Source: an uncultured Bacteroidota bacterium
GTDB taxonomy: Bacteria > Bacteroidota > Bacteroidia > Chitinophagales > Saprospiraceae
Length of the DNA: 56,860 nucleotides
Assembly: GCA_937861115.1 (NCBI GenBank)
Contig: CALMBD010000231.1
Span: 1-56,860 of the forward strand
Reading direction: 5' to 3'
Shown: positions 36,892 to 53,449 of the stretch, in pieces
Position numbering within the stretch: the stretch's first letter is position 1
Layout: the number at the start of each line of letters is the position of its first letter
The notes under the pieces: model-generated
Seen by the model: only the letters and a program-made list of their open reading frames with translations
The model's database searches: none
What the model was told of the DNA's origin: nothing
Position numbers and translations under genes: made by a program

Positions 36892-36953
36892 AGTATTAAC
36901 CTTTTGCATAATTGTATCAATCCGGGGGCCAGGCAATTGCGATATTTGTCAAA

Positions 36954-39900
36954 ATGAATCACAAACGGATGGCTATGAGTCCAGTTTTTACCAGTCAATT
37001 TTTAAAAAATCGCCCGGGTATTGCGCCCGTCTTTTTTCGGGGCGTCGCGTTGCTGTTATTGTTGGCGGCGGCACAATATGCAGATGCCCAGGGCTTTATA
37101 GTGTCCGGGACGGTTGTTTCCGCAGAGGATAATCAGCCGCTGATCGGCGTGAGTGTTCGGGAAAAAAGTGCGCGCAACGGCACCACAACCGATGCCGGCG
37201 GCGCTTTCCGCCTCGAAGTGGCCTCATCGGATGCCGTCCTGCAGTTCAGTTATATCGGCTACGGCACGCTGGAGGTGCCCGTAGCGGGCCAGACTGCGCT
37301 TGCCGTCGTACTCGACGCCAACGCCAACATGCTGCAGGACGTGGTCGTGACGGGGTACAAAAAGGAAATCCGGAGCGACATCTCCTCTTCCATCGCCTCG
37401 ATCAAATCACGCGATATTGAAAAACTCGTTGTATCGGGACTCGACCAGGCCTTGCAGGGCCAGGCAGCGGGCGTGATGGTCACGCAGGTTACAGGCTCGC
37501 CGGGCGACGACATCGCGGTGCGCATCCGGGGAGCGGGAACGCTGGGCAACAACAACCCGCTGTTCGTCATCGACGGCGTGCCGACGACCGGCAACATCAA
37601 TATGTTCTCTCCCGGCGATATCGAGTCCATCGAGGTGCTGAAGGACGGCGCTGCGGCGGCGATCTACGGCGCCCGGGCCGCCAACGGCGTGGTGTTGATC
37701 ACCACCAAACGCGGCAAATCGGGCAAGCCGGTTTTTTCTTTCAACGCATACAGCGGCATACAACAGGCGGTCAACCTGCCGGAGTTGCTCAACGCGGCGG
37801 AATACCTCGAGGTCCGCAACGAGGCGATCGTCAATGCCAACGCGCTGCGCAACCCCGCCAACCAGTTGCCCACCTACGACCCTGCCATACTGGATACGCT
37901 GCCCGACAACAACTGGCTCGACAAGGTATTCGGCCTCGCGCCCATCCAACACTATTCCCTGTCTGCCATGGGCGGCAGCGAAAACAGCAGTTTCTATATT
38001 TCGGGTGAATACCAGACGCAGGACGGCGTGTTCAAGGGACAGGCGTTCGACAAATACCAGGTGCGGTTCAACGGCGAAATCGGCAACAAACGCTTCAGGG
38101 TGGGCAATAACCTCTCCTTTTCCCATACTTACCGCAAGGTGATCGGCGCTTCGGGCGACGGCTACGGCCAGGGCAATGAACTGAGCGGTATCCGCTACGC
38201 GCTCATTGCCGCGCCTGTTTTTCCGGAAAAATACGCAGACGGCACCTATGTCAAGGTCAGCTCGGAACTCGGCGACCCGACGCTGTTCGGCGACGGCAAT
38301 GCCAACCCGGTCGTATTTGTCAACAACACCGACTGGACGATCCGCCGCTACCGCGTATTCGGGAACGTATTTGCAGAGTACACGGTGCTGGAAGGACTGC
38401 GGCTGCGCAGCACGCTCGGCGGCGATTTCCAGTTCGAGCGCGAAAAACTCTTCAAGGAACGGCTGTCTGCCGCTATTTACGATCCCACTTCGCTCAACGA
38501 GGGCCGGGTGTTCAACCAAACGCTGGTCTGGAACAATACGGCCGATTTCCAGCGCACTTTCGGCAACCACCGCGTGTCGGCGCTGCTCGGCATGGAGGCC
38601 ATCCAGAATCATACCGATTACCTCGGCGCTTCGGCAAACAATTTCCGCAGCACCGACCAGTTATTCCGCTATATCGACGCCAGCAATCCTGAGGCGCTCG
38701 AGAACCTCGGCGCTTCCGGTATCGCCACGGAATGGGCGCTGCTGTCGTATTTCGCACAGGCCGGGTATTCGTTCAAGGGACGTTACGTGTTGAGCGCGGC
38801 CGTACGCCGCGACGGTTCTTCCCGTTTCGGGCCCAACAACCGCTGGGGTGTTTTTCCCTCTGTTTCCGCTGCCTGGAACGTGTCGAACGAGCGCTTTTTT
38901 GAACCCGTGAAATTTATTTCCACCCTGAAAATCCGCGCCAGTTGGGGACAACTCGGCAATCAGGAGATCGGCATCTATCCCTTCAGTTCGCTGGTGAGTA
39001 CGGGCGACCGCGTGTATATCTTCGGCGACAAGATCGTAACCGGCTCTACCATCCTTGAAACGGGCAACAGCAATATCCGCTGGGAAACGAGCACCCAGAC
39101 CAACCTCGGGCTCGACGTGAGCTTCTGGCAGGATCGCCTGTCGCTGTCGGCCGACCTGTTCCGCAAAAAGACCGACGACATCCTTGTGCGCGTACCCGCA
39201 CCGCAGGCCGGCGGCGCCCAGCGGCCGCCGTTCGTCAATGCCGCTTCCGTGGAGAACAAGGGCGTGGAACTGGGCCTGATCTACAAGAACAGGATAGAAA
39301 AATTCAACTACTACGTCGGCGCCAATATTTCAGCCGTGCGCAACAAAGTGCTGTCTATCGCCGACAGCGAGCCCATTCTGGGCGGTTTCGGCTTGTCAGA
39401 CGGACCGTTAACCAAAACGGAACCGGGTTACCAGGTCGGGTCTTTCTTCCTGTATGAAATGGACGGTATTTTCCAGACGCAGGACGAGATCGACGCCAGC
39501 CCGTTCCAGACACAGTACACCCGTCCCGGCGACGTGAAATTTGCCGACCTCAACGGCGACAACAAGATTGACGACAAGGATCGCAAGCACATCGGCAACC
39601 CCTTTCCGGACTTTACCTATGGTGTGAATATGGGGTTCAACTGGAATAATTTCGACTTTTCCGCGCTGGTGCAGGGGGTGCAGGGCAACGACGTGTATTT
39701 TCTGTACGGCAATTTCGCCTATGAAACGCAATTGCGCGGCTTCAATTCCTACAAGGATGCGCTCAACCGCTGGACGCCCTCGAACACGAACACCAATATT
39801 CCAAAACTGAGCGTGGACGACCGCAACGGCAACCGCCGCGCATCCACCCGCTTTTTGGAAGACGGTTCCTACTTGCGCATCCGCAACATTACGCTGGGCT

Positions 39901-40130
39901 ACAATTTTGCACCACTGCTCAGGTGGGGGGATATTTCCGGGTTCCGCCTGTATGTGACGGCTCAAAATGCGTTCACGTTTACCAAATACCCCGGCCTCGA
40001 CCCTGAAATTCAGGCCAATTCCAATGACACCCGCGGGCTGGGGCTCTCGTCCGATCTTGCCGTGGGCATCGACTGGGGTACCGTTCCTGCGCCGCGTACA
40101 TTCATCGCGGGACTTAAACTGGATTTTTAA
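36954..40130 (+). CDS. SusC-like TonB-dependent outer-membrane transporter
   Basis: This 1058-residue protein imports glycan oligosaccharides across the outer membrane together with SusD. It has a signal peptide (cleavage about residue 46, after QYADAQ), a CarboxypepD-reg-like N-terminal domain (about 50-125) and a TonB plug (about 135-250, with VVTGYKKE and IYGARAANGVVLITTKRG). The large beta-barrel ends in an aromatic C terminus (GLKLDF). I start it at 36954, downstream of the probable -7 box; the next ATG is at 36969. The SusD gene follows after 59 bases. Confidence 0.93.
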   Translation: MNHKRMAMSPVFTSQFLKNRPGIAPVFFRGVALLLLLAAAQYADAQGFIVSGTVVSAEDNQPLIGVSVREKSARNGTTTDAGGAFRLEVASSDAVLQFSYIGYGTLEVPVAGQTALAVVLDANANMLQDVVVTGYKKEIRSDISSSIASIKSRDIEKLVVSGLDQALQGQAAGVMVTQVTGSPGDDIAVRIRGAGTLGNNNPLFVIDGVPTTGNINMFSPGDIESIEVLKDGAAAAIYGARAANGVVLITTKRGKSGKPVFSFNAYSGIQQAVNLPELLNAAEYLEVRNEAIVNANALRNPANQLPTYDPAILDTLPDNNWLDKVFGLAPIQHYSLSAMGGSENSSFYISGEYQTQDGVFKGQAFDKYQVRFNGEIGNKRFRVGNNLSFSHTYRKVIGASGDGYGQGNELSGIRYALIAAPVFPEKYADGTYVKVSSELGDPTLFGDGNANPVVFVNNTDWTIRRYRVFGNVFAEYTVLEGLRLRSTLGGDFQFEREKLFKERLSAAIYDPTSLNEGRVFNQTLVWNNTADFQRTFGNHRVSALLGMEAIQNHTDYLGASANNFRSTDQLFRYIDASNPEALENLGASGIATEWALLSYFAQAGYSFKGRYVLSAAVRRDGSSRFGPNNRWGVFPSVSAAWNVSNERFFEPVKFISTLKIRASWGQLGNQEIGIYPFSSLVSTGDRVYIFGDKIVTGSTILETGNSNIRWETSTQTNLGLDVSFWQDRLSLSADLFRKKTDDILVRVPAPQAGGAQRPPFVNAASVENKGVELGLIYKNRIEKFNYYVGANISAVRNKVLSIADSEPILGGFGLSDGPLTKTEPGYQVGSFFLYEMDGIFQTQDEIDASPFQTQYTRPGDVKFADLNGDNKIDDKDRKHIGNPFPDFTYGVNMGFNWNNFDFSALVQGVQGNDVYFLYGNFAYETQLRGFNSYKDALNRWTPSNTNTNIPKLSVDDRNGNRRASTRFLEDGSYLRIRNITLGYNFAPLLRWGDISGFRLYVTAQNAFTFTKYPGLDPEIQANSNDTRGLGLSSDLAVGIDWGTVPAPRTFIAGLKLDF

Positions 40131-40189: not shown

Positions 40190-41620
40190 ATGAAATTTTT
40201 CAAACATATACTGTTTTTACCGGCTGTCCTGCTCGCTTCCTGCACCGGTATCCTCGACAAGGAACCGATCGCAACGCTCGATGCCGGTTCGTATTTCCAG
40301 ACAGAAGACGACGCCATTCAGGCGATAAATGCCGCTTACGGGCCTTTGCTGCTCAATAATGACAACAAGAATTTCTACTGGGGTTTTGCAGAACTGACTT
40401 CGGATGAGGCCATCACCGGTGGGGACGGCTCGCGTCCGGGCCTGACAGAACTGGACGCTTTTACCTACACGCCGCGGACGGAGGAGTTCAACGATTTCTG
40501 GAAACTGCAGTACACCGGCATCACGCAATGCAACCTCGTGCTCGATCACATTGCCGATATCGACATGAACGAGTCTACCCGAAATCGCGTGACCGGCGAG
40601 GCGCTGTTCCTGCGCAGTTATTACTATTTTTTGCTGACACAGGTGTTCGGCGATGTGCCCCTGTTCACCAGCGTGGCGCCGCCCGACCAGTTGAAGGTGC
40701 CCCGTACCTTGAAAGCGACCGTTTATGCGCAGATCGAGTCGGACTGCGAGCGCGCAGCCGGGTTGCTGCCTGCCCAGTATGGCGCCGACGAGGTGGGCAG
40801 GGCGACCAGGGGCGCTGCATATGCCCTGGCGGCCAAAGCATATTTATACGAAAAAAACTGGGCCAAGGTGCTCGAATACACGGCCAAAGTGAAGGGGCTG
40901 GGTATTTATGCGCTGATGACCGACTACGAGGATAATTTTAGAAAAAACACCCAGAACAACGCGGAATCTGTGTGGGAGATCCAGCATGCCAACCTGGAAC
41001 TCGGCGTCGGGAACTTCCTCAACCAGTGGTGGGCATCCAAAAAATTCGAGGGCTACGGCTTCGCCGAGGTCACGCCCGAATTCGTGAACGCCTTCGAGCC
41101 GGATGACCCGCGCCGCAAGTTCACGGTGGCCATGAACAACGAGGACTATTTCGGGGTGGTGTACAAGCCTTCTTTTTCCGCGACGGGCTTCGGCGTCAAA
41201 AAATACCTGCAACCCAAGGCCGAGGTGACCCAAAAGGCCGACGGCGACATCAACTACACTGCCATCCGCTACGCGGAGGTCCTGCTCTGGGAGGCCGAAG
41301 CACTTACTGAACTGAACAGGGTGGCCGAGGCACAGGCTCCGCTGGAGCAGGTACGCGCCCGCGCCCGTGCGCAGGCTGCCGATCCCGCCACCGCGCTGCC
41401 CCCGGTGATTACCACTGATCAACAGGTCATGCGCGACGCCGTGCGCCACGAGCGCCGCGTTGAACTTGGCTTTGAATTGCACCGCTTTTTCGACCTCGTA
41501 CGCTGGGGCGTTGCCGCTCAGGTATTGCCGGGTTTCCAGGCGGGCAAACACGAAGTGTTCCCGCTGCCGCAAACCGAGATCGACCTGAATTCCGCGCTGA
41601 TCCAGAATCCGGAGTATTGA
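40190..41620 (+). CDS. SusD/RagB-like outer-membrane lipoprotein
   Basis: This 476-residue lipoprotein (lipobox LASC, C18) is the glycan-binding lid of the SusC pore. The N-terminal SusD-like TPR region (about 20-210, with ALFLRSYYYFLLTQVFGDVP) and the C-terminal RagB/SusD domain (about 260-476, with RYAEVLLWEAEAL and RHERRVELGFELHRFFDLVRWG) are complete. Ligand specificity cannot be read from sequence. It is paired with the SusC gene upstream. Confidence 0.94.
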   Translation: MKFFKHILFLPAVLLASCTGILDKEPIATLDAGSYFQTEDDAIQAINAAYGPLLLNNDNKNFYWGFAELTSDEAITGGDGSRPGLTELDAFTYTPRTEEFNDFWKLQYTGITQCNLVLDHIADIDMNESTRNRVTGEALFLRSYYYFLLTQVFGDVPLFTSVAPPDQLKVPRTLKATVYAQIESDCERAAGLLPAQYGADEVGRATRGAAYALAAKAYLYEKNWAKVLEYTAKVKGLGIYALMTDYEDNFRKNTQNNAESVWEIQHANLELGVGNFLNQWWASKKFEGYGFAEVTPEFVNAFEPDDPRRKFTVAMNNEDYFGVVYKPSFSATGFGVKKYLQPKAEVTQKADGDINYTAIRYAEVLLWEAEALTELNRVAEAQAPLEQVRARARAQAADPATALPPVITTDQQVMRDAVRHERRVELGFELHRFFDLVRWGVAAQVLPGFQAGKHEVFPLPQTEIDLNSALIQNPEY

Positions 41621-41836: not shown

Positions 41837-44800
41837 ATGCACAAATCTGCTTTTTTCCCTTTCATCCTGTTTTTGTTTTTTACCCGCTTGTTGTGTGCCC
41901 AAACGGGACAGATCGCGGTACCCCGCATTGAACTCATGCCCAACCTGCCCGGACCGTACAACGTACGCGACTGGCGGCAGGTGGCGTTGCGCTACGATTC
42001 TTTTGTTTACAATTTGCAGAAAACAGGTCAATACCTGCCCCTGGTTTCGCTCGGCGCTTCCGGGGTGAATTATCCACAGAACCCCATATTTCGCCTGCAC
42101 ACTTATGTCGGCACCAATTCACCGCTCGGCAACGAGGCCATCAATGTACTGCCCTCGCTCGTGGGCGCTACGCTGGTCGGGGCGGACAAAAGCGACCAGT
42201 ACGGCCAGAACTGGCTGCTGATGAGCCGGGACTTCTTCAACAAGGCCAACGGGGAGAATATTTACCTGAATAATGCCGGTGCGAGCAGCGGCGGCGACTG
42301 GTGGTACGACTTGATGCCCAATGTGTTTTTTTACCAGTTGTACGACCTCTACCCGAATATGGACGGCGAGGCGGACCAGCAGTTTATGACCATCGCCGAC
42401 CGGTTCCTTGAGGCGGCGCGCGCTATGGGCGGTAGCGATGCGCCCTGGGAGCCCGCGTATATGAATTACCGGGCCTGGAAATTCAAGACCATGGAACCGA
42501 ATGCCAACGGTGTAAAGGAACCCGAGGCGGCAGGCGCTTTTGCCTGGATATTGTACAATGCTTACCGGCAGACCGGTAATCCCGACTACCTCAAAGGTGC
42601 CGAGTGGTCGATCGAGTTTCTGGACAACTGGACCTCCAACCCTTCCTACGAACTGCAATTGCCCTACGGCACGTACACGGCGGCCAAAATGAACGCTGAA
42701 CTCGGCACGGCCTACGACGTGGAAAAAATGCTCAACTGGTCGTTCGACCGCGGCGATTTGCGCGGCTGGGGCACCATTGTCGGCACCTGGGGCGGTTTCG
42801 ATGTGTCGGGACTGGTTGGAGAAGCCAACGATACGGGCAACGACTATGCCTTCCAGTTGAACGGTGTGCAACAGGCGGCGGCGCTGGCGCCGATGGTGCG
42901 TTACGACAAGCGCTTTGCGCGGGCCATCGGGAAATGGATGCTCAACCTGGCGAATGCCACGCGGCTCTATTACCCCGGCTTTTTACCTTCCGGTTTGCAG
43001 GATGCCTCCGCATGGTCGTCGTCCAACGACCCGCAGCAGGTGATCGGCTATGAAGCGCTGCGCGAAAAGTGGCAAAACCAGTCTCCCTTTTCTACCGGCG
43101 ATGCCGTTCAGGGGGGATGGGCGGCTACGAACCTCGCACTTTACGGCAGTTCCTCGATCGGCTACCTGGGCTGCATGGTGGAAAAAACCAACGTGGACAA
43201 AATCCTGAAACTCGACCTGCTCAAGACCGATTTTTTCGGCGGCGACGCGTATCCGACCTTCCTGCTGTTCAATCCGCACAGCACTGTCAAGGTGGTGCAG
43301 CTGGATGCGGGTACAGGGCCGGTCGATGTGTACGATGCCCTTACGGAGACATTTTTGCTGCAGGGCGTTTCCGGTGTAGTCGACCTGCCCATTCCGGCCA
43401 ATCAGGCGATTTTGGTATCGCTTGCCCCGGCCGGCGGCACCATTGCCTACGACAAAAACCGGATGCTGATTAACGGCGTTGTGGTCGATTTCGATCAACA
43501 TGCACAGCCCTATACCCGCGCGCCGCGGATCAAAGCGCTTGCCGCTTCAATGAATCCGCTGGAAATCGGCGACTCGACGAGCGTTTTTGCCACCGTAGAC
43601 GATACCGATTCCGGACAGATCACCTACACGTGGAGCGTGAGTGCCGGAACCATATCCGGCACGGGCGATATGGTCCATTTTATCGCGCCGGCAACGCCCG
43701 TCAATGCGGAAATACAACTCATCGTTGCCGACCCCGAAGGCAACAGCGACACGGCTACACTCCTGCTGTCGGTCGTCCCGGAGATTAACGACGCGCCGCA
43801 AATCATTGACATACAGAAAAGTGTGGGGTATGTTGCCCCCAACGGAGTAATGCAACTTAATTGCCTGGCGAGCGATGCCAACAACGATCCGTTGACCTAC
43901 GAATGGTCGGGCTCCGGAGGAGGCTTCAGCGGCAGCGGCAGCACCGTGGACTGGACGGCGCCTGCTCTGGAAGGGGTCTACCAACTTGCCGTAAAAGTAA
44001 CCGACGACGAGGGGCTGTCCGAACAGATGACCATATCCGTTCTGGTAAAAGACTTCAGTACCACAGCGGGAAGCCTGATCGCACATTACCCCTTCAGCGG
44101 CAATGCCGACGACGTGAGCGGCAACGCCCTGCACGGCCAGCCGAATGGCGCCATCCTGGTACCCGGATTGGGCGCTGCACCCCAGAGTGCCTACTATTTT
44201 AATGGCGGTAGTCAGCACATTGCTGTAGCCAACAATGCGCTGCTCAATTTTCAGGATGCGATCACGGTCAGTTGTTGGTTCAAAGCCAATGCACTGCCCG
44301 AAAAGGAGACGTTTTTGCTCTCCCACGGCAGTTGGCAGAACCGCTGGAAATTATCCGTCACCCCGGAAAAACACCTGCGATGGACCGTAAATTCCCTGAA
44401 CGGCATAGCCGACCTCGACGCGGAGGCCATCCTGCAAACCGACAGTTTTTACCACGTTACGGCTACCTACGACGGCAGCCTGCTCGCGCTGTACCTCAAC
44501 GGCGCCCTGCACAGTTACAAGACTTTATCCGGGAAAATACGCACCACCACACTGCCTTTCCTCATGGGGCAAATGCTGCCCGACAACGCAGATTACAATT
44601 TCAAGGGAGTGCTGGATGAAGTAAGCATATACAATTACGCCCTCGATCCCGGCGCAGTTGAGGTACTGTACCAGCAGGGGTTGACACCGGCCGTCGAGCC
44701 GGCATTGCCGGAAAAAGCGGCCTTCACGCTGCTGCCCAATCCCGCCCGCGACCGGGTTGCGCTCCGTTTTCCGGAGGATAGCGGGGAGGAGATGGTAATC

Positions 44801-44956
44801 CGGATCAGGGACCTTACGGGGCGTCTGCTGCTGGAACGAAGGGGCAGGGTAGGAGCGTCCCTTGAAATTGACCTGGGAGGCTGGGCGCCGGGATATTACG
44901 TGGTTTCGGTTCGATCAGACCGCGCCGTGGCGGTAAAGGGTTTTATGAAGACTTGA
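41837..44956 (+). CDS. secreted PUL protein with unrecognised helical domain, Ig-like, LamG and T9SS domains
   Basis: This 1039-residue protein has a signal peptide (residues 1-21, ending LLCAQ). An unrecognised domain follows (about 30-560) whose repeated helical blocks such as GAFAWILYNAYRQTGNPDYL suggest an alpha/alpha toroid followed by a small beta domain (FLLFNPHS, GPVDVYDALTE). Two Ig/cadherin-like domains (about 564-740), one LamG/concanavalin-like domain (about 747-946, with SWQNRWKLSV) and a T9SS tail (about 962-1039, LLPNPARD) complete it. The unrecognised domain is shared with the lipoprotein at 51713-53449, including WGGFDVSGL and NANATR/NATNAAR-like segments. Its place after SusD and its sorting tail suggest a cell-surface glycan depolymerase. 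I start at 41837, because the longer frame runs through the promoter. No known CAZy family is recognised. Confidence 0.8.
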   Translation: MHKSAFFPFILFLFFTRLLCAQTGQIAVPRIELMPNLPGPYNVRDWRQVALRYDSFVYNLQKTGQYLPLVSLGASGVNYPQNPIFRLHTYVGTNSPLGNEAINVLPSLVGATLVGADKSDQYGQNWLLMSRDFFNKANGENIYLNNAGASSGGDWWYDLMPNVFFYQLYDLYPNMDGEADQQFMTIADRFLEAARAMGGSDAPWEPAYMNYRAWKFKTMEPNANGVKEPEAAGAFAWILYNAYRQTGNPDYLKGAEWSIEFLDNWTSNPSYELQLPYGTYTAAKMNAELGTAYDVEKMLNWSFDRGDLRGWGTIVGTWGGFDVSGLVGEANDTGNDYAFQLNGVQQAAALAPMVRYDKRFARAIGKWMLNLANATRLYYPGFLPSGLQDASAWSSSNDPQQVIGYEALREKWQNQSPFSTGDAVQGGWAATNLALYGSSSIGYLGCMVEKTNVDKILKLDLLKTDFFGGDAYPTFLLFNPHSTVKVVQLDAGTGPVDVYDALTETFLLQGVSGVVDLPIPANQAILVSLAPAGGTIAYDKNRMLINGVVVDFDQHAQPYTRAPRIKALAASMNPLEIGDSTSVFATVDDTDSGQITYTWSVSAGTISGTGDMVHFIAPATPVNAEIQLIVADPEGNSDTATLLLSVVPEINDAPQIIDIQKSVGYVAPNGVMQLNCLASDANNDPLTYEWSGSGGGFSGSGSTVDWTAPALEGVYQLAVKVTDDEGLSEQMTISVLVKDFSTTAGSLIAHYPFSGNADDVSGNALHGQPNGAILVPGLGAAPQSAYYFNGGSQHIAVANNALLNFQDAITVSCWFKANALPEKETFLLSHGSWQNRWKLSVTPEKHLRWTVNSLNGIADLDAEAILQTDSFYHVTATYDGSLLALYLNGALHSYKTLSGKIRTTTLPFLMGQMLPDNADYNFKGVLDEVSIYNYALDPGAVEVLYQQGLTPAVEPALPEKAAFTLLPNPARDRVALRFPEDSGEEMVIRIRDLTGRLLLERRGRVGASLEIDLGGWAPGYYVVSVRSDRAVAVKGFMKT

Positions 44957-45088
44957 TGAAAGGCATTTCGAGCCTCATCATCGCAAGCCGTAAACCCTTT
45001 TTACCTCCCTCTGACCAATAAAGAAACAACCACCTGGGGACGACATATTCGACAACCAGTCATTTTTCAACATAAATCAACCTGACAC

Positions 45089-48000
45089 ATGAAACATTAC
45101 ATACAGCCATTCCTGCTACTTGCCTTTTGGCTTTTGGCAGCCGCGGGCCTGAATGCCCAGACTCCGGTAGCGAGTTATGCTTTCTCCGGAAACGCGAAGG
45201 ACCAATCGTCCTTTGCCAACAACGCAACAGTCAACGGCGCTACGCTGACACAGGACCGCTTCGGCTGGTCGAACAGTGCAATCGCCTTCGATGGAATACA
45301 GGGAGCGGTGCGGGCCAACAATGCCGCACAACTCAATTCGGCGAATACCACGATCAGTTTCTGGGTCAAGCCGAACGAATTTCCAGGACAGGGGGAGGCA
45401 TATCTGCTCTCCTTCGGCGGCTGGCAGGAGCGCTGGAAAATTTCGCTGCCTTCACACGGCAAGCCGGTTTTTACCACACACGCCAACGGCGCCTGCTGTA
45501 GCGACATGGATTCCGGCACACCGCTGACCCTCGATGCCTGGACGCACGTGGTCATGGTGCATAACGGCGCCAAGGACCTTATCTATTTCAACGGCGTGAA
45601 AGTCAACGAAAAGGACGTGACCGGCGCACTGGATGCGACGATCCACCCGCTGGGTATCGGTTTTGACCCGATTGACAAGGCCAATTTCTTCAACGGCGCC
45701 CTCGACGAGGTGCAGATATTTGACGTGGCCCTCAACGACGCGCAGATCGCCGCATTGTATGCCACCCAAAGCACAGCCCCCGTGGTAGCGCAGGGCAAAG
45801 TGGCCTCCTATGCCTTCAAAGGCAACGGCGCCGATGATTCCAGTTTTGGCAACCATGCCGATATCAGCAGTGCGTCTCCGGCGACCGACCGCTTCGGCTA
45901 CGGCAAAAGCGCCCTGTCGTTCAACGGTACTTCCAGCGAGGTCAGTGCTTCAAACGCCGCACAACTCAACTCGGGTACCACAACGGTCAGTTTCTGGGTA
46001 AAGGTCAACGCATTGCCCGCCAACGGTGAAGCCTTCCTGCTGTCGTACGGCGGCTGGCAGGAACGCTGGAAAATTTCCCTGCCTGCCCACGGGAAGCCGG
46101 TATGGACCACCAACCACACCAACGGCATCTCGGATATGGACTCCGGCGACGGCAACGAACTGCCCGTAGGCGTCTGGAAGCACGTGGTGATGGTACACGA
46201 CGGCGCAAAAGACAAAATTTTCATCGACGGTGCCCTGAAAGCCCAAAAGGACGTCGCAGGCACGCTGAATCCGACCACGAAGCCGCTGGGTATCGGTTAC
46301 AACCCGATCGACGGCGGCAACTGGTTCGATGGTGCGCTCGATGAGGTTCAGATATTCAACTACGCACTTTCCGACGGGGACGTCGGCAATCTGTACACGG
46401 CCCAGGCCACCTTCCCCGGTACACCGGCCGATTTGGTGGCGTCGTACGAGTTGAACGGCAATGGCAGCGACAACACACAATTCGGCAACGACGCCGTTCT
46501 CGGCGGCGCCTCCACTGCGGTGGCCAACCGGCACGGCTGGGGCTCCAACGCGCTGAACGGCTATGCCACAGCCGCCAATTCGGTAGCCCTGCAGTCGGAT
46601 TACACAACGATCAGTTTCTGGGTAAATCCCAACACTTTCCCCGGAACCGGCGAGGCATTCGTGCTGTCGAACGGCGGCTGGCAGGAGCGCTGGAAAATCT
46701 CACTGCCCTCTCACGGCAAACCCGTATTCACCACACATTCCAACGGCGTCTGTTGCAGCGACATGGATGCCGGTACACCGCTTGCGCTCAATACCTGGAC
46801 GCACGTAGTCATGGTGCACGACGGCACGAACGACATCATCTATTTCAATGGTGTCAAAATGAACGAAAAAGCCGCAACCGGCGCGCTGGACAAGACAAAA
46901 TACCCGCTCGGCATCGGCTACGATCCCATTGACAACGGCAGTTTCTTTGACGGCAGTCTCGACGACATAGAGATTTACAACCGAGCCTTGTCGGCAGTCG
47001 AAGTGGCGGCGCTGTACAACAGTCAGAATATGACGCCGGTCGTCGGCGGGCCGCTTGTTGCATACTATCCCTTCTCCGGCGACGGCACCGACGTGACAGC
47101 CTACAACAACAATGCGACAGGTGTGCAAATCGGCCCCGACCGCTTCGGCAAGGCCAACAAGGCTGCGGCTGTCGACGGCATCAGTACGGAAATAAAAGCG
47201 GCCAACTCACCGCAGCTCAATTCGGCAAAAACCACCGTCAGTTTCTGGGTGAAAGTCAATGCCCTGCCCGCCAACGGCGAATACTACCTGCTCTCCTTCG
47301 GTGGCTGGCAGGAGCGCTGGAAGATTTCCCTGCCGCAGCACGGCAAACCGGTGTGGACAACCAATAACACCAGCGGTATCTCAGATATGGACTCCGGCGA
47401 CGGCAACGAACTGCCTGTGGGTGTCTGGAAACACGTGGCCATGGTGCACGACGGCACCTTCGACAAGATTTTCATCGATGGTGTGAAGGTGGCCGAAAAA
47501 AGCGTGACGGGCGACCTCAACAATACGACAAAGCCCCTCGGTATCGGTTACAATGCCGTCGACGGTGGCAACTGGCTCGACGGGTTGATCGACGAAGTGC
47601 AAATTTTCAATACCGCACTCATCGATTCGGACGTCACCTTGCTGTACACCTCCTCCAGCCAACCGCCAACCAGTACGGATACCGAAGCGCCCTGTGCGCC
47701 GCTCAACCTGGCCGGCGATGTCAAATTCACCAATGTGCAACTCACGTGGCTACCTGCTACCGACAACGTGGGCGTGATTGCCTACAATGTGTACCAGGAT
47801 GGTAAACTTATGGCTTCGACGCCCAACACCGGCTTTTATGTGACGGGTCTGACCCCGCTGACCGACTATGTGTTCGGTGTGACGGCGATAGATGCCGAAG
47901 GCAACGAATCGCTGATGACCACGCTCAAGGTGACCTCCGGTCCGGACGAAACACCCGACACCACACCGCCCACGGCGCCCGGCAACCTGACGGGTACGGC

Positions 48001-49183
48001 AGCGGCCAACTCGATACTCATATCCTGGGATCCGTCGACCGACGACACACAGGTGGCCGGTTATGTGATCCTGGTCGACGGCGTCGTATTCGACACCGTG
48101 TCGGCTTCCACGCTTTCCGCGTTTGTCGGTGGTCTCGACCCGCTGACCCTGTACACTTTTGAGGTATATGCATTCGACCTGGCCGGCAACAATTCGGCAA
48201 TTTCGGAGATCACACTGAGCACCTCGGAACCTATCGATACGGGCGAACCGGGCCTTGTGGCATACTATCCCTTCGACGGCAATGCCAACGATGCCACCCC
48301 CTACCAGAACCACGGCGTGATCGGCGGCAACCCGGTGTTTGAGGTGCCGAACCACCCCAACGGCGGCGGGCAGAATATCAAATTTGACGGCATGCAGGAC
48401 TCCGTACTGGTGCCCAATGCTGTACAATTGATTTCTGATTATACGACTATCGCTTTCTGGATTCGTGTCGACGACCAGAACCTGCAGGATGCAGAAGCCT
48501 ATGTTATCGACTTTGGCCACTGGAACCAGCGCTGTAAAATTTCGCTGCCGCAGCACCTGAAAATCGTGTGGACAACCAACAGCAACAATGCGCAATTCAT
48601 GAACTTTATTTCGGATATGGATAGCGGCGACGGCAACGAGATGGTCAAAACCTTCTGGTGGTACGTCACCATGGTGCACGATGGCACGAACGATATCATC
48701 TACGTCAACGGCCAGCAGGCGAATATCAAGCCTGTGCTGGGCAAACTCAACACGACTGCCCGTCCGCTGTGTTTTGGAAATAACCCCATCGAGGGTGGCC
48801 AGTACTTTAATGGTGCGCTCGATAACGTGAAAATCTACAACAAGGCTCTGACGAGCGGAGAGATCGGACAACTGTACAACACCGGCACGACAGGTATCAA
48901 CGACCTGTTCGGTAACGACCTGCGCGGCATCGTACTGGGCATTTCGCCCAATCCGGCGATCGATATTCTGACGGTGCAACACGCTTTTCCCCAGAATCAG
49001 TCGCTTCAGGTCCGTGTATTTGACGTTCAGGGGCGGCAGGTCAGCGACCTGCGTTTCGGGAAAAATGAAATTCCGGCAGGTCAGTTTTCGCTCGACGTAA
49101 GCCAGTACAACCGGGGTATGTACACGCTCAATTTTGTGTTTGGCGGTAAAAATCTCGGCTCGATGCAGTTCAGCAAGCAGTAA
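45089..49183 (+). CDS. secreted five-LamG, two-FN3 protein with T9SS sorting domain
   Basis: This 1364-residue protein has a signal peptide (residues 1-24, ending GLNAQ) and four LamG/concanavalin-like repeats (27-226, 238-438, 449-645, 656-854). Two fibronectin type III domains (about 864-950, 958-1046), a fifth LamG (1056-1265) and a T9SS tail (about 1283-1364, ISPNPAIDIL) follow. Every repeat carries a GGWQERWKISL-like core, altered in the fifth to GHWNQRCKISL. Repeats 1 and 3 share CCSDMD and IIYFNGVK, while 2, 4 and 5 share ISDMDSGDGNE, so the pattern is A-B-A-B-B'. No catalytic motif is seen. It is probably a multivalent surface glycan-binding protein that holds substrate near SusC/SusD. 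Confidence 0.85.
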   Translation: MKHYIQPFLLLAFWLLAAAGLNAQTPVASYAFSGNAKDQSSFANNATVNGATLTQDRFGWSNSAIAFDGIQGAVRANNAAQLNSANTTISFWVKPNEFPGQGEAYLLSFGGWQERWKISLPSHGKPVFTTHANGACCSDMDSGTPLTLDAWTHVVMVHNGAKDLIYFNGVKVNEKDVTGALDATIHPLGIGFDPIDKANFFNGALDEVQIFDVALNDAQIAALYATQSTAPVVAQGKVASYAFKGNGADDSSFGNHADISSASPATDRFGYGKSALSFNGTSSEVSASNAAQLNSGTTTVSFWVKVNALPANGEAFLLSYGGWQERWKISLPAHGKPVWTTNHTNGISDMDSGDGNELPVGVWKHVVMVHDGAKDKIFIDGALKAQKDVAGTLNPTTKPLGIGYNPIDGGNWFDGALDEVQIFNYALSDGDVGNLYTAQATFPGTPADLVASYELNGNGSDNTQFGNDAVLGGASTAVANRHGWGSNALNGYATAANSVALQSDYTTISFWVNPNTFPGTGEAFVLSNGGWQERWKISLPSHGKPVFTTHSNGVCCSDMDAGTPLALNTWTHVVMVHDGTNDIIYFNGVKMNEKAATGALDKTKYPLGIGYDPIDNGSFFDGSLDDIEIYNRALSAVEVAALYNSQNMTPVVGGPLVAYYPFSGDGTDVTAYNNNATGVQIGPDRFGKANKAAAVDGISTEIKAANSPQLNSAKTTVSFWVKVNALPANGEYYLLSFGGWQERWKISLPQHGKPVWTTNNTSGISDMDSGDGNELPVGVWKHVAMVHDGTFDKIFIDGVKVAEKSVTGDLNNTTKPLGIGYNAVDGGNWLDGLIDEVQIFNTALIDSDVTLLYTSSSQPPTSTDTEAPCAPLNLAGDVKFTNVQLTWLPATDNVGVIAYNVYQDGKLMASTPNTGFYVTGLTPLTDYVFGVTAIDAEGNESLMTTLKVTSGPDETPDTTPPTAPGNLTGTAAANSILISWDPSTDDTQVAGYVILVDGVVFDTVSASTLSAFVGGLDPLTLYTFEVYAFDLAGNNSAISEITLSTSEPIDTGEPGLVAYYPFDGNANDATPYQNHGVIGGNPVFEVPNHPNGGGQNIKFDGMQDSVLVPNAVQLISDYTTIAFWIRVDDQNLQDAEAYVIDFGHWNQRCKISLPQHLKIVWTTNSNNAQFMNFISDMDSGDGNEMVKTFWWYVTMVHDGTNDIIYVNGQQANIKPVLGKLNTTARPLCFGNNPIEGGQYFNGALDNVKIYNKALTSGEIGQLYNTGTTGINDLFGNDLRGIVLGISPNPAIDILTVQHAFPQNQSLQVRVFDVQGRQVSDLRFGKNEIPAGQFSLDVSQYNRGMYTLNFVFGGKNLGSMQFSKQ

Positions 49184-49221
49184 TCTCCCGCAGATTTTGT
49201 CGAAAAAGATAACACGGGGTA

Positions 49222-49271
49222 TTCACACGGGCAGCCTCCCGTTCAGGAAGGCTGTTCCGTGTGAACTTTTG
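49222..49271 (+). terminator. strong hairpin within the PUL
   Basis: TTCACACGG at 49222-49230 and CAGCCT at 49232-49237 pair with AGGCTG at 49249-49254 and CCGTGTGAA at 49257-49265. CTTTTG follows. It could be a partial terminator or processing site that sets lower expression of the downstream cytoplasmic genes. Confidence 0.65.
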
Positions 49272-49357
49272 TGTATCCGGACCGGCAGGTTCATAGGAAA
49301 TGATCACCTGGATGTCATCATGGCTGCATCAACTAAGCGAATCATAGTAAAAAGGGT

Positions 49358-50407
49358 ATGGCAAATCGATTTTCTGAAAATCCAATTATTACGACCAAAG
49401 ATATCAAACCCAGCCAGCCCGGGCTGGTGGTGGAATGCGTACTGAATCCGGGCGTTTTTCGCTTTGAGGGCAAAACCTGGCTGCTGTTGCGCGTTGCGGA
49501 GCGTCCGGCCCAGAAACCGGGCATGGTATCTTTCCCGGTGTTGCGCGAAGGCGGGCATATGGAAATACTTGAATTCGCAAAGGATGACCCCGATCTGGAC
49601 CTTTCCGACGCGCGAATGGTCAGTTACAAAAAACAAACCTACCTGTCGACGATCTCACACCTGCGCCTGATGTGCAGCGACGACGGCGTGCATTTTTACG
49701 AACCCGACCATATCCCGACCAAACTGTACGGCCAGGGCAATCTGGAAACCTACGGCATTGAAGACGGCCGCGTGAGCCTGATCGATGGGGAGTATATCCT
49801 GACCTATACGCAGGTTTCGGAAAGCGGCGTGGGCGTGGGCATGATGCGCACACGCGACTGGCGCCATTTTACCCGGGAAGGCATGATCATTTCACCACAC
49901 AACAAGGATTGCGCCCTCTTCGAGGAAAAAATCGGCGGCAAATACGTCTGTCTGCACCGACCCTCGGGCATTGCACTGGGCGGTAATTTTATCTGGATCG
50001 CCACCTCGCCCGACCTCCTGCACTGGGGCGGACACCACTGCATACTGCGTACACGGGAAGGGTCCTGGGACTCTGCCCGCGTGGGCGCCGGCGCCGCTCC
50101 GATCAAAACGAAGGAGGGCTGGCTGGAAATTTACCACGGCGCAGATGAACACCACCGCTACAGCCTCGGTGCGGTATTGCTCGACCTGGATGACCCGACC
50201 AGGGTGCTCGCGCGCTCGCGCGAACCGATCATGGAACCCTCGGCAGCCTACGAATTGACCGGATTTTTCGGCAACGTGGTTTTTACCAACGGCCACCTCG
50301 TGGACGGCGATAAAATCACCCTGTATTACGGCGCCTCCGATGAGGTCATTTGTGGCGCCACCATGTCCATCGAAAGCATCTTATCCGACATCTTAACTAC
50401 TACCTGA
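49358..50407 (+). CDS. GH130-family beta-mannoside phosphorylase/hydrolase
   Basis: This 349-residue protein has no signal peptide, so it is cytoplasmic. It is a five-bladed propeller of family GH130. The proposed catalytic acid is D136 in GIEDGRV; the usual proline after this aspartate is glycine here. Other family signatures are NPGVFRF, LLLRVAER (R45), CLHRP (H200), SPDLLHWGG, RVGAGAAPI and EIYHGAD (H260). The arginine and histidine set is of the type that binds phosphate in phosphorylases, so phosphorolysis of a beta-mannoside is likely; linkage (1,2 or 1,4) is not determined. The MFS gene starts four bases after its stop, indicating tight coupling of import and cleavage. Confidence 0.88.
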   Translation: MANRFSENPIITTKDIKPSQPGLVVECVLNPGVFRFEGKTWLLLRVAERPAQKPGMVSFPVLREGGHMEILEFAKDDPDLDLSDARMVSYKKQTYLSTISHLRLMCSDDGVHFYEPDHIPTKLYGQGNLETYGIEDGRVSLIDGEYILTYTQVSESGVGVGMMRTRDWRHFTREGMIISPHNKDCALFEEKIGGKYVCLHRPSGIALGGNFIWIATSPDLLHWGGHHCILRTREGSWDSARVGAGAAPIKTKEGWLEIYHGADEHHRYSLGAVLLDLDDPTRVLARSREPIMEPSAAYELTGFFGNVVFTNGHLVDGDKITLYYGASDEVICGATMSIESILSDILTTT

Positions 50408-50410
50408 ACC

Positions 50411-51652
50411 ATGTTTCAAAAACTGGCGAAAGAAATCAACTTTTTCAACGCGAATCCCCTCGGGATGCGGATTTTGCTGTTGACCAACCTCATCTATGCC
50501 CTGGTAATGCCCATTGTGGAGCTGTTCATCGGCGCCTATATCATGCGCAATTCGTCGGACATCAGCCTGGTGGTCATTTTCCAGTTGGCCGTGTACACGG
50601 GTATTCCGTTGACGTTCATGTTCAACGGTTTCCTGCTGAACCACGTGCCGATCGCCCGGCTGTATTCGCTGGGCATGTTGCTGAGCGGGGTGTCGATGTA
50701 TGCGATGATGTCGCTGGACAACCTGGACACACTGGGCGTCTTTTTCGCGGGACTGATCATGGGCCTGTCGTACGGGTTTTTCTGGGCCAATCGCGATTTT
50801 CTGGCGCTCAACACCACGAACGACGGCAACCGGAACTACTACTACGGGATCGAAACCTTTTTTTACACGATCACCGGTATTGTCGTTCCACTGGCCGCCG
50901 GGGCGTTTATCGCGTCCACTGAATTGAACGGCTGGTTTGGCGGCAACGTCAACGTGGCCTATTACGGACTCACGACGGGTGTTTTTGCGCTGTCTGTTTT
51001 TGCTTCCATCCTGGTGCATCGCGGAAAGTTCCAGAACCCGATAAGGGCTCCGTTCCTGTTTTTGAAATTTGACCAGCTCTGGAACAAAATGCTCGCCCTT
51101 TCCGCGCTGAAAGGCGTTGCCCAGGGCTATATCGTTACTGCGCCGACCATGCTGATCATGAGCCTGGTAGGCAAGGAGGGTGCGCTGGGGCTCATACAGG
51201 GTATCGCGGCTTTCCTGTCGGCGATCCTGCTCTACGTGCTGGGTCGCACTTCGGCGCCCAGACACCGCCTGCTGATCTACGGTATCGGTTGTGCGTTGTT
51301 TGTATTGGGCGCCTTGTTCAATGCCGGCATGTATTCCGCATTGGGCGTTATACTGTTCGTGCTGTGCCTGCTGTTTGCCCGCCCCTTGCTCGACATCGCG
51401 TATTTTCCCGTACAGTTGAAGGTGATCGACGTGGTGGCGGAAAAGGAAAAGCGCAATGCGTTTGCCTATATCTTCAACCACGAACTGGGCCTGTACCTGG
51501 GCCGCCTGTTCGGCTGCGGGCTGTTCATCGTGCTGGCTCGGTATGTGAGCGAATACGCCGCCCTGCGCTATGCGCTGCTGGTGATCGCCGCGGTGCATTT
51601 TATGGGCTGGTTCATGATGCGCAACATCGTCAAAGACCTGGATAAACACTGA
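50411..51652 (+). CDS. MFS sugar transporter
   Basis: This 413-residue inner-membrane protein has about twelve hydrophobic segments in two halves, separated by a charged loop (about 205-220, HRGKFQNPIRAPF). It has no signal peptide. Its start is three bases after the GH130 stop. MFS porters of this kind in Bacteroidota PULs import di- and oligosaccharides for a cytoplasmic GH130 enzyme. Substrate assignment is from this context only. Confidence 0.87.
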   Translation: MFQKLAKEINFFNANPLGMRILLLTNLIYALVMPIVELFIGAYIMRNSSDISLVVIFQLAVYTGIPLTFMFNGFLLNHVPIARLYSLGMLLSGVSMYAMMSLDNLDTLGVFFAGLIMGLSYGFFWANRDFLALNTTNDGNRNYYYGIETFFYTITGIVVPLAAGAFIASTELNGWFGGNVNVAYYGLTTGVFALSVFASILVHRGKFQNPIRAPFLFLKFDQLWNKMLALSALKGVAQGYIVTAPTMLIMSLVGKEGALGLIQGIAAFLSAILLYVLGRTSAPRHRLLIYGIGCALFVLGALFNAGMYSALGVILFVLCLLFARPLLDIAYFPVQLKVIDVVAEKEKRNAFAYIFNHELGLYLGRLFGCGLFIVLARYVSEYAALRYALLVIAAVHFMGWFMMRNIVKDLDKH

Positions 51653-51712
51653 ACGACCCGATGATTCAATAATCTTGTCACAGTTCCCGGTGTCACAATT
51701 CCCGATTCAATT

Positions 51713-53449
51713 ATGATACGACCATACGTCCTGCTTATACCCGTCCTGCTGCTGTGCGCCTGTTCCCGCAGGATGTCTTTTACTCCATCGGCAATTCCCG
51801 TAGCACAGCGGCCAATACCCCGCGTGGAAAAAATGCCCAACCACCCGAAACCCTACGATTTCAAGGACTGGAGACAGGCGACGCTCGATTTCGACCGCCT
51901 GGCATTCGACCCGGAGCAAAAGGGCGATCTCTGGCCGCTGATCTGGTTCGACAAGGCAGGCCGCAATTTTCCCGACAGTACCTTCGGACTGTACACCGCC
52001 ATGGGCGACGTTCGTATGGGGCCTCGCATCAACAACGGCGAAAACCACGAGGCCCTCGGCGCCCTCGGAGCGGTGCTGGGTGCCACGCTGGCGGGCATCG
52101 ACAAAAGCAGGCAGGATAACCGGAATTATGTGCGCATGCTGCGCAACTACTTCAACCGCGACAACGGCTGGAATGTCGTCATGAACTTCACCAACAAGGG
52201 CGCGCATATCGGCGGCGGATACGGCAACGATTTCTGGTACGAAGTACACAACAACGTGCTGTTTTACAGCGTCGCCGACCTGTACCCGGACGAGCGGGAC
52301 TTCAGCAGCATCCAGCGCAGCATAGCGGAGCAGTTTTACCGCTCCGACTCGGTTATGGGCAACAGCTACAGTTATTCTTATTTCGATTTCAAAAACATGA
52401 AGGGGGAGCGAAGCCATATACCCACCCAGGAGGATGTGGCCGGCGGTTATGCTTTCATCCTGTATGCCGCCTGGGTGAAGTTCGGCGATGAAAAGTACCT
52501 GCGCGCCGCCAGAAATGCCCTGACGGTGCTGTACAACCAGAAGGAAAACCGCTTTTACGAGGCCATGATGCCTGTTGCCGCCTACGTCGCGGCGCGTATG
52601 AATGTGGAGACCGGCACCGACTTCGATATTCAGCGCTTTCTCGACTGGACTTTCGACGGTACGGCGGTCGGACGGGAGGGCTGGGGAGTGCTGGCCGACA
52701 ACTGGGGCGGTTACGATGTCAGCGGACTGGCGGGCAGCACGGTGCACAACGGCGGCTACGGGTTCCTGATGAATACCTTCGACCTCATGATGCCCATGTC
52801 GGCACTGGTGCGCTACGACCAGCGCTACGCCCGCGCGGTGGGCAAATGGGCGCTCAACGCCACCAACGCCGCGCGCTTCTGTTACCCCGGCAACATGCCT
52901 GATTCACTGCAGGCTATCCCGCAGTACAAAAGTGTTACCAAAAACGTGATTGCCTACGAAGGGATCATCAAGGAATCCGTGTACCCGGAATTCAAGGGCA
53001 TCACTCCTTTTGCGCAGGGTGACGGCCCGTTGTGGGTACAGGGCAACCCGCCGCAGAGCATGTTTTCAGTGTATGGCAGCGGGCACGTCGGTTTTTTCGG
53101 CGGCACCGTCCGGCAGACAAACGTGCCGGAAATACTTCGGATCGATTGCAATGTTACCGATTTTTACAAAAAAAACGCAGCATACCCGACATACCTGTTT
53201 TTCAACCCTTATGACGCAGAGAAAACGGTGGAAACCGACCTTGGCGCCAAAAATACAGACGTATATGATGCCGTGTCCCGCACCTTCCTGGGGCGCAATG
53301 TCAGCGGCCGCTTCCGCTTTTCCCTGCCCGCCGATGCGGCGCGGGTGCTCGTACTCATTCCCGCCGGGAAACCATACACCATAGAAAACGGAACGCTGAA
53401 GGCAGGTGGAACAGTAGTGGATTACCGCTACATGGCAAAAACAAGGTAA
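51713..53449 (+). CDS. lipoprotein of the unrecognised PUL domain family
   Basis: This 578-residue protein has a lipoprotein signal (C17 in LLLCAC) and is otherwise a single domain (about 35-575) clearly paralogous to the N-terminal domain of the protein at 41837-44956. Shared blocks are KPYDFKDWRQATLDFDR (here) with PYNVRDWRQVALRYDS, DKSRQDNRNYVRMLRNYF with DKSDQYGQNWLLMSRDFF, WGGYDVSGLAGS with WGGFDVSGLVGE, VRYDQRYARAVGKWALN with VRYDKRFARAIGKWMLN, and YLFFNPYD with FLLFNPHS. Helical repeats such as AGGYAFILYAAWVKFGDEKY suggest an alpha/alpha toroid. It is likely periplasmic or surface-anchored and ends the PUL. Catalytic activity is an inference. Confidence 0.8.
   Translation: MIRPYVLLIPVLLLCACSRRMSFTPSAIPVAQRPIPRVEKMPNHPKPYDFKDWRQATLDFDRLAFDPEQKGDLWPLIWFDKAGRNFPDSTFGLYTAMGDVRMGPRINNGENHEALGALGAVLGATLAGIDKSRQDNRNYVRMLRNYFNRDNGWNVVMNFTNKGAHIGGGYGNDFWYEVHNNVLFYSVADLYPDERDFSSIQRSIAEQFYRSDSVMGNSYSYSYFDFKNMKGERSHIPTQEDVAGGYAFILYAAWVKFGDEKYLRAARNALTVLYNQKENRFYEAMMPVAAYVAARMNVETGTDFDIQRFLDWTFDGTAVGREGWGVLADNWGGYDVSGLAGSTVHNGGYGFLMNTFDLMMPMSALVRYDQRYARAVGKWALNATNAARFCYPGNMPDSLQAIPQYKSVTKNVIAYEGIIKESVYPEFKGITPFAQGDGPLWVQGNPPQSMFSVYGSGHVGFFGGTVRQTNVPEILRIDCNVTDFYKKNAAYPTYLFFNPYDAEKTVETDLGAKNTDVYDAVSRTFLGRNVSGRFRFSLPADAARVLVLIPAGKPYTIENGTLKAGGTVVDYRYMAKTR

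What the first reader, a model, noticed from the sequence alone, without database searches (positions are those of the whole stretch)
41837..53449. Duplicated unrecognised domain in a GH130 PUL: candidate new glycan-degrading family
The protein at 41837-44956 (residues about 30-560) and the lipoprotein at 51713-53449 share one domain along its whole length, with blocks such as WGG(F/Y)DVSGL and VRYD(K/Q)R(F/Y)ARA(I/V)GKW. One copy is sent to the surface by T9SS with Ig and LamG domains, the other is a lipoprotein. The locus has SusC/D, GH130 and an MFS porter, but no recognisable endo-glycanase, esterase or lyase. The simplest reading is that this domain is the missing depolymerase, in an endo/exo pair. 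Helical repeats point to an alpha/alpha toroid, but I name no known family.
Basis: partly seen in the sequence, partly recalled or inferred. Interest (0 to 1): 0.85.

Follow-up and report, generated by a model that had tools for sequence, protein, structure and literature searches.

The report
Unclassified toroid enzyme in mannan-utilisation loci
Two proteins in this bacterial sugar-harvesting gene cluster share a large domain that matches no enzyme family searched here, is predicted to fold as a helical barrel with a set of conserved acidic residues, and usually sits beside a gene for breaking down beta-linked mannose, so it is probably the missing enzyme that cuts the polymer.

Summary
The T9SS-exported protein (41837-44956) and the lipoprotein (51713-53449) share one ~540-residue domain (36% identity, E 3e-114), here called TOR, that Pfam and NCBIfam do not recognise. 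AlphaFold2 models TOR2 confidently (pLDDT 93.8) as a helical barrel plus beta-sandwich. Nearest solved folds are GH146/GH127 (E 1.7e-6, TM under 0.4), but profiles do not join TOR to GH127, GH144 or GH88. Ten positions are acidic in at least 95% of 107 relatives; each of six pocket-side loops has one. TOR is widespread in Bacteroidota (at least 545 stretches). A GH130 gene lies nearby in 16 of 18 evenly drawn and 76 of 80 scanned loci. The window's GH130 is closest to beta-1,2-mannoside enzymes. Fourteen places with a 60-64% identical GH130 lack TOR, and also lack the MFS porter. Best reading: an unclassified glycan-hydrolase family, most likely cutting beta-1,2-linked mannan, with a surface and a cell-side form. 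Catalysis and linkage are inferred. The two copies are an old split, not a recent duplication.

The parts
41837..44956 (+). TOR1: T9SS-exported protein, 1039 aa (TOR domain, Ig/PKD-type domains, LamG, C-terminal sorting tail)
41900..43528 (+). TOR domain of TOR1
   Evidence: profile match; BLASTP
43547..44062 (+). Ig/PKD-type domains of TOR1 (Big_9, PKD)
   Evidence: Big_9 best stretch residues 651-735, two stretches; outer limits approximate, from the NCBIfam stretch 575-742
44201..44653 (+). LamG (Laminin_G_3) domain of TOR1
   Evidence: residues 789-939
44735..44953 (+). T9SS sorting tail of TOR1
   Evidence: Por_Secre_tail, TIGR04183
51713..53449 (+). TOR2: probable lipoprotein, 578 aa, almost wholly the TOR domain
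   Evidence: model
49358..50407 (+). GH130, closest to Uhgb_MS and Lin0857 (beta-1,2-mannoside enzymes); no signal peptide seen by eye
   Evidence: NCBIfam equivalog models match below their cut-offs
50411..51652 (+). MFS porter
36912..40130 (+). SusC-like TonB-dependent receptor
   Evidence: read from the translation; BLAST relatives in other loci; not scanned with Pfam
40190..41620 (+). SusD-like lipoprotein
45089..49183 (+). T9SS surface protein with five LamG and two fn3 stretches, probably a glycan-binding protein of the same locus
   Evidence: kept in L026, L027, L047
35814..36791 (-). AraC-type regulator, divergent from SusC
   Evidence: kept upstream of SusC in L026 and L027

Best explanation
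TOR is an unclassified exported family of (alpha/alpha)-barrel glycan hydrolases. TOR1 is carried to the cell surface by T9SS and held to substrate by its LamG domain; it cuts a polymer rich in beta-mannosyl, most likely beta-1,2-mannosyl, bonds. SusC/D import the pieces. TOR2, on the cell side of the envelope, trims them to short oligosaccharides. The MFS porter takes these into the cytoplasm, where GH130 phosphorolyses them to mannose-1-phosphate and mannose. Shown: the shared domain, the predicted fold of TOR2, conserved acidic positions, gene linkage, export signals in sequence. Inferred: catalysis, linkage, endo or exo action, location of TOR2, direction of flow, phosphorolysis by this GH130.
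For: Fold: pLDDT 93.8, pTM 0.94; by my assignment of helices the loops before inner helices are long and those after them short. Ten positions are at least 95% D/E over 107 sequences (Neff 36): nine at 1.00 and one at 0.97, after rounding. Each of the six outer-to-inner loops has at least one; four sit within three residues before an inner helix and none before an outer one (this last test was chosen after seeing the data). Linkage: GH130 within 16 of 18 evenly drawn loci, where about 0.26 are expected by chance on a round figure of 3 GH130 per 4.2 Mb; 19 of 19 TOR genomes have a GH130 against 127 of 371 others, Fisher p 4e-9. GH130-MFS-TOR2 with SusC/D recurs, also on two plasmids whose record names TOR2 'hypothetical protein'. 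Substrate: the window GH130 matches Uhgb_MS (E 1.9e-149) and Lin0857 (E 5.9e-90) best. Passages of PMC8950772 say that Lin0857 is a beta-1,2-mannobiose phosphorylase and that Uhgb_MS makes beta-1,2-mannobiose. In nine evenly drawn loci with TOR1-type layout and no SusC/D relative, a GH2 gene is present in 8 (BLAST E to 1e-25; 7 under a stricter rule); the two scanned with Pfam look like beta-mannosidases, one clearly, one with mannosidase domains below cut-off. One GH130 from each of two of these loci also matches beta-1,2 enzymes best. In 14 places with a GH130 60-64% identical to the window's but no TOR, no BLAST relative of the window MFS was found, while in the 9 places with TOR, 7 have the MFS relative and one of the other two, L026, an ABC sugar transporter.
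Against: No activity data. Invariant residues as a whole are not enriched in the pocket-side loops (18 of 50, p 0.66) and the acidic enrichment over those loops is modest (7 of 10, p 0.038). Foldseek TM-scores are low and the list also holds a phage tail protein at rank 5. The window GH130 falls below the cut-offs of the NCBIfam equivalog models and Uhgb_MS is listed as mixed-linkage, so beta-1,2 is not certain. A GH13 relative is in 32 to 34 of 100 loci, 31 within 4 kb of TOR, so the polymer may not be pure mannan. Fourteen loci hold a second unclassified exported family that could share the job. L102 has TOR2 beside GH130 without the MFS, and L092 has TOR2 with neither GH130 nor MFS. Loci are related, and L028 and L096 are the same locus, so p-values overstate independence.
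Confidence: 0.55

Rival explanations
1. TOR is a glycan hydrolase of the same locus but cuts another bond: a beta-1,3/1,4-mannoside, an alpha-mannoside, or a backbone or side-chain bond of a mixed polymer, leaving mannosides for GH130.
For: Uhgb_MS is listed as mixed-linkage. GH13 relatives occur in 32 to 34 of 100 loci and GH94-like relatives in 7 of 9 T9SS-only loci at E to 1e-25, 4 under a stricter rule. The divergent TOR of L043 pairs with a GH130 that BLAST does not link to the window's.
Against: The GH130s tested beside TOR in three loci all match beta-1,2 enzymes best. Among the eight proteins scanned between 35814 and 54420 none is GH13 or GH94-like.
Confidence: 0.25
2. TOR is a lyase or C5-epimerase acting on uronic acids in a mannose-containing polymer.
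For: 4 of 20 members match C5-epim_C, best E 4e-4. A GH130 Man-GlcA phosphorylase is named in PMC8950772 (passage).
Against: The only basic residue conserved at 95% or more is K112. No gene for unsaturated uronate use was among the eight proteins scanned. The GH130s tested are closest to enzymes of neutral mannosides.
Confidence: 0.07
3. TOR is a non-catalytic glycan-binding barrel.
For: Invariant residues as a whole are not concentrated in the pocket-side loops; the LamG parts are binding modules.
Against: Ten positions stay acidic over 36 effective sequences, more than I would expect of binding alone; no other depolymerase was recognised in the scanned part of the window locus.
Confidence: 0.07
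4. TOR is a sugar 2-epimerase of the AGE type, as cellobiose 2-epimerase partners GH130 in beta-1,4-mannan use.
For: Same barrel type (recalled); the R. albus pairing is stated in PMC4264767 (passage).
Against: Those epimerases are cytoplasmic (recalled); TOR1 carries a T9SS tail and TOR2 an N-terminal signal-like stretch. AGE was not compared by profile here.
Confidence: 0.04

Closest known systems
GH127/GH146 beta-L-arabinofuranosidases
   Same: Most of the best Foldseek matches (ranks 1-4 and most of 6-22)
   Different: TM by query 0.25-0.37; profile probability 5.6%; no conserved cysteine in TOR, whereas GH127 uses a cysteine nucleophile with zinc (recalled; PDB titles speak of covalent complexes and cysteine-directed inhibitors)
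GH144 endo-beta-1,2-glucanases (PF10091)
   Same: Functional analogue: a barrel enzyme feeding a beta-1,2-specific phosphorylase (recalled)
   Different: Profile probability 0.7% (this profile had no positive control)
GH88/GH105 unsaturated uronyl hydrolases (PF07470)
   Same: Barrel; weak Foldseek matches to uronyl hydrolases
   Different: Profile probability 19%, against 14% for a SusD control that rests on 25 columns at the signal peptide
Yeast-mannan loci of Bacteroides with GH130 (PMC4599007, abstract and passages)
   Same: A polysaccharide utilisation locus with a GH130 acting on beta-1,2-mannosides
   Different: There BT3780 is a hydrolase acting on beta-1,2 caps of alpha-mannan; the scanned proteins here hold no alpha-mannan enzyme
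YPO2471/7TEM family
   Same: Exported, no Pfam or NCBIfam match, in 14 of 100 TOR loci
   Different: Profile probability against TOR 4.9%: a different family

Membership tests
GH127/GH146 | Detectable sequence-profile homology | tested here: not met
   hhalign probability 5.6% (GH127-GH88 positive control 87%); no PF07944 hit
GH127/GH146 | Conserved catalytic cysteine(s) | tested here: not met
   No Cys column above 30% weighted except one at the lipobox (43%); that cysteines are catalytic in GH127 is recalled
GH144 | PF10091 homology | tested here: not met
   probability 0.7%; no Pfam hit
GH88/GH105 | PF07470 homology | tested here: not met
   probability 19% against 14% for a SusD control; no Pfam hit
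D-glucuronyl C5-epimerase C-terminal domain (PF06662) | Pfam match over the curated cut-off | tested here: inconclusive
   4 of 20 members match, best E 4e-4, scores against the cut-off not shown; the window copies do not match; too few loci for a profile
(alpha/alpha)-barrel (as a fold) | Barrel of paired helices with pocket-side loops | tested here: met
   model of TOR2 pLDDT 93.8 with helix order assigned by me; most top Foldseek matches are barrel hydrolases, at low TM
Active glycoside hydrolase | Hydrolysis of a glycosidic bond by two carboxylates | not testable with these tools
   candidates E94, D154, D222, E264, D316, E397, D418
GH130 of the beta-1,2 group (window 49358-50407) | Closest to enzymes known on beta-1,2-mannosides | tested here: met
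   Uhgb_MS and Lin0857 ahead of the beta-1,4 enzymes in the PDB; NCBIfam equivalog cut-offs not reached
SUS-type PUL | Adjacent SusC/SusD pair with catabolic genes | tested here: met

The most novel reading that the evidence does not exclude
TOR is the first family of endo-acting beta-1,2-mannanases and reveals a widespread Bacteroidota route for eating beta-1,2-mannan, a polymer known chiefly from trypanosomatids and as yeast cell-wall caps; its natural source for these bacteria is then unknown and open to search.
Probability: 0.35. Interest if true: 0.8.

Novelty: new variant of a known kind. Interest (0 to 1): 0.62.

Why it matters
Bacterial phosphorylases and mannosidases for beta-1,2-mannosides are known, but I met no enzyme that first cuts a beta-1,2-mannan in the listings and passages I saw. 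That is weak evidence of absence: the search cannot take a comma, so '1,2-mannan' itself could not be asked, and CAZy, preprints and most subscription papers are not held. A family with at least 545 matching stretches in one genome collection, a confident model and a defined partner gene makes the step directly testable, and would name a protein that two plasmid records call hypothetical.

Tried and rejected
Recent duplication: rejected, the two forms are an old split. Membership in GH127, GH144 or GH88: not supported by profile comparison. TOR tied to GH130 alone: rejected; of 23 places with a GH130 at least 60% identical to the window's, TOR is beside 9, and the other 14 (L208-L221) have none. 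In Flavobacterium-type L212 and L220 the GH130 (82-83% identical to that of L073) stands on the same right flank that borders the whole locus in L073; in L215 it does so with the right flank of L089 and both flanks of L102. Surface exposure of TOR2: not supported; acidic residues at +2 to +6 average 0.4 in 45 of 87 TOR2 proteins with a lipobox call and 1.65 in 66 of 82 SusD proteins. The lipobox pattern is mine, makes some false calls and does not match the window's own TOR2. Weak relatives in G261 and G021 (E 2e-4 and 4e-4): the G261 one has no Pfam match; not pursued. C5-epimerase profile: only two marginal loci came back. A fold search of viral models gave one unnamed hit at E 7e-5, not followed.

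Misses in the GH130 count: L032 and L038 of 18; L053, L085, L092 and L113 of 80. L038, L053, L085 and L113 are on short contigs, L032 was fetched as 18 kb from the contig's start, and L092 is a full 21.6 kb without GH130. By plain BLAST the evenly drawn count is 15 of 18, with L043 missed. The two sets overlap: L028 and L096 are the same locus. ORF calling by length hid TOR1 of L035 behind an antisense frame; the six-frame count has it. The family profiles for one search took the longest frame at each match automatically and were not checked one by one.
Full report
Observation. The first has Ig-type, LamG and T9SS sorting parts. Neither has a Pfam or NCBIfam match in the domain; nor do 20 aligned members in NCBIfam. 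In Pfam, 4 of the 20 touch C5-epim_C (best E 4e-4), one LANC_like and a few others once each. A profile search of PDB sequences gives only LanC-like proteins at E above 1.

Distribution. Of 395 genomes drawn from the phylum, 21 match: 19 as full domains and two (G021, G261) only weakly. Their titles are of Bacteroidota (Saprospiraceae, Flavobacterium, Pedobacter, Chitinophagaceae, Bacteroidales and others) except L113, a MAG titled Algicola that falls among flavobacteria in the tree. That collection covers all phyla, but with 80 of at least 545 seen I cannot say whether TOR occurs outside Bacteroidota. Two plasmids of Persicobacteraceae carry it; phage records do not.

Fold and pocket. AlphaFold2 on TOR2 with 44 sequences: mean pLDDT 93.8, pTM 0.94. 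I assign twelve barrel helices from the DSSP line, with loops of 49, 27, 26, 10, 37 and 62 residues before the inner helices and of 12, 6, 2, 5 and 1 after them, then a beta domain. Foldseek's best PDB matches are mostly GH146 and GH127 (from E 1.7e-6), with a phage SSV19 tail protein at rank 5, and further down GH9, GH94, GH116, rhamnosidases and uronyl hydrolases, all at TM by query under 0.4. Profile-profile comparison gave 5.6% (GH127), 0.7% (GH144) and 19% (GH88), with a GH127-GH88 positive control at 87% and a SusD control at 14%. Over 107 sequences ten positions are at least 95% D/E: 42, 94, 154, 158, 222, 264, 316, 397, 418, 464 in model numbering; nine round to 1.00 and 154 is 0.97; at 158 and 222 D and E exchange. 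At least one lies in each of the six pocket-side loops, four just before an inner helix (a test chosen after seeing them). Against this, invariant residues as a whole are not concentrated in those loops (p 0.66), and the acidic test over whole loops gives only p 0.038. No cysteine is conserved in the domain, which sets TOR apart from the GH127 mechanism as I recall it.

Linkage. Of the 18 evenly drawn loci, 16 hold a GH130 within the fetched 11.6-20 kb; of the 80 scanned loci, 76. All 19 TOR genomes have a GH130, against 127 of 371 others. By BLAST, the scanned loci hold relatives of the window's SusC in 70, SusD in 71 and MFS in 77 of 80; the evenly drawn ones in 8, 8 and 6 of 18. Nine of those 18 have another layout, TOR1 without SusC/D relatives; a GH2 relative is present in 8 of the 9 and an ABC-transporter ATPase in 6. 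The two GH2 proteins scanned look like beta-mannosidases, one clearly (L042) and one with the mannosidase domains below cut-off (L036). In L026, a genome of the window's family, an ABC transporter stands where the window has the MFS. So transporters change while TOR and GH130 stay.

Substrate. The window's GH130 is closest to Uhgb_MS and Lin0857. One GH130 from L036 and one from L030, of the other layout, also match beta-1,2 enzymes best. From PMC8950772 I read passages: Lin0857 is a beta-1,2-mannobiose phosphorylase; Uhgb_MS is a mixed-linkage mannoside synthase that makes beta-1,2-mannobiose. From PMC4264767, passages: beta-1,2-mannan occurs in trypanosomatids, and the Teth514 enzymes may salvage such polysaccharides. 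From PMC4599007, start of the abstract and passages: non-phosphorylase GH130s are beta-mannosidases, and beta-1,2-mannose caps side chains of C. albicans mannan. A GH13 relative within 4 kb of TOR in 31 loci warns that the polymer may also hold alpha-glucosyl groups.

Natural presence-absence test. Of 23 places with a GH130 at least 60% identical to the window's, 9 have TOR beside them and 14 do not. In the 14, no BLAST relative of the window MFS and no TOR was found, and SusC or SusD relatives appear in three, at 26-32% identity (L215, L217, L218). Of the nine, seven have the MFS relative, L026 an ABC transporter, and L027 proteins of the same sizes that were not scanned; eight have SusC/D. 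The Fisher value (1e-6) treats this as 9 of 9 against 0 of 14 for having any sugar transporter, ABC or unscanned included, and ignores kinship. At matched chromosomal flanks the GH130 stays while the rest is present or absent. TOR thus mostly goes with uptake of an outside polymer, as expected of a depolymerase, rather than with GH130's own work; L102 is an exception, with GH130 and TOR2 but no MFS.

Where the two forms act. TOR1 has a T9SS tail. TOR2 proteins with a lipobox call have few acidic residues after the cysteine, unlike SusD from the same loci, which points to the cell side of the outer membrane; this is inference. Eight scanned loci carry both forms, as does the window and probably plasmid pPP5, whose second protein has the LamG and sorting tail but was not aligned with TOR.

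Verdict. A real, widespread, unclassified exported family with a confident barrel model, tied to beta-mannoside use. Beta-1,2-mannan hydrolysis is the best single reading, at about even odds once linkage is included. The novelty claim rests on Pfam, NCBIfam, the PDB and the ten paper searches. In those, terms such as '1 2-mannan' cannot meet the printed comma; 'anywhere' searches for '2-mannan' and '2-mannanase' are the nearest substitute.

Noticed in passing
L058:6249-7571 and L036:4103-5380; 14 of 100 loci: A second exported family without Pfam or NCBIfam match, like PDB 7TEM 'Putative exported protein YPO2471' (E 2e-87), sits in both kinds of TOR locus; profile probability to GH127 is 82% (SusD control 29%). 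The window's genome has a distant copy at C242:3795-4535, about 1.6 kb from another GH130.
   Followed up: partly
L212, L220 against L073; L215 against L089 and L102: The same chromosomal flank borders either a lone GH130 or a whole locus built round it; L102 looks intermediate, with GH130 and TOR2 but no MFS.
   Followed up: partly
L069:11807-13435, L136:22415-24046 and relatives, 32 to 34 of 100 loci: A GH13 alpha-glucosidase-type gene rides with many TOR loci, 31 within 4 kb, hinting at alpha-glucosyl groups in the polymer.
   Followed up: partly
L100:11814-14285, L058:11665-14133 and relatives, 8 to 9 loci: An 820-residue protein without Pfam or NCBIfam match (L100 copy scanned) occurs in TOR loci of Flavobacteriaceae, Sphingobacteriaceae and Labilibaculum.
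   Followed up: no
L043:700-10779 (G379): The most divergent TOR (36%) still lies with a different GH130, SusC/D, a ROK sugar kinase and an MFS porter.
   Followed up: partly
window 45089-49183: Five LamG and two fn3 stretches in one T9SS protein, kept beside TOR1 in L026, L027 and L047; hits to a toxin receptor-binding Pfam model there look like fold overlap with LamG.
   Followed up: no
window 20360-22264, - strand: By eye this reads as a GH13 alpha-amylase-type protein, about 14 kb outside the locus; not scanned.
   Followed up: no
L113: A MAG contig titled Algicola, Pseudomonadota by NCBI name, whose TOR2 falls among flavobacteria in the tree: wrong name, mixed bin or transfer.
   Followed up: no
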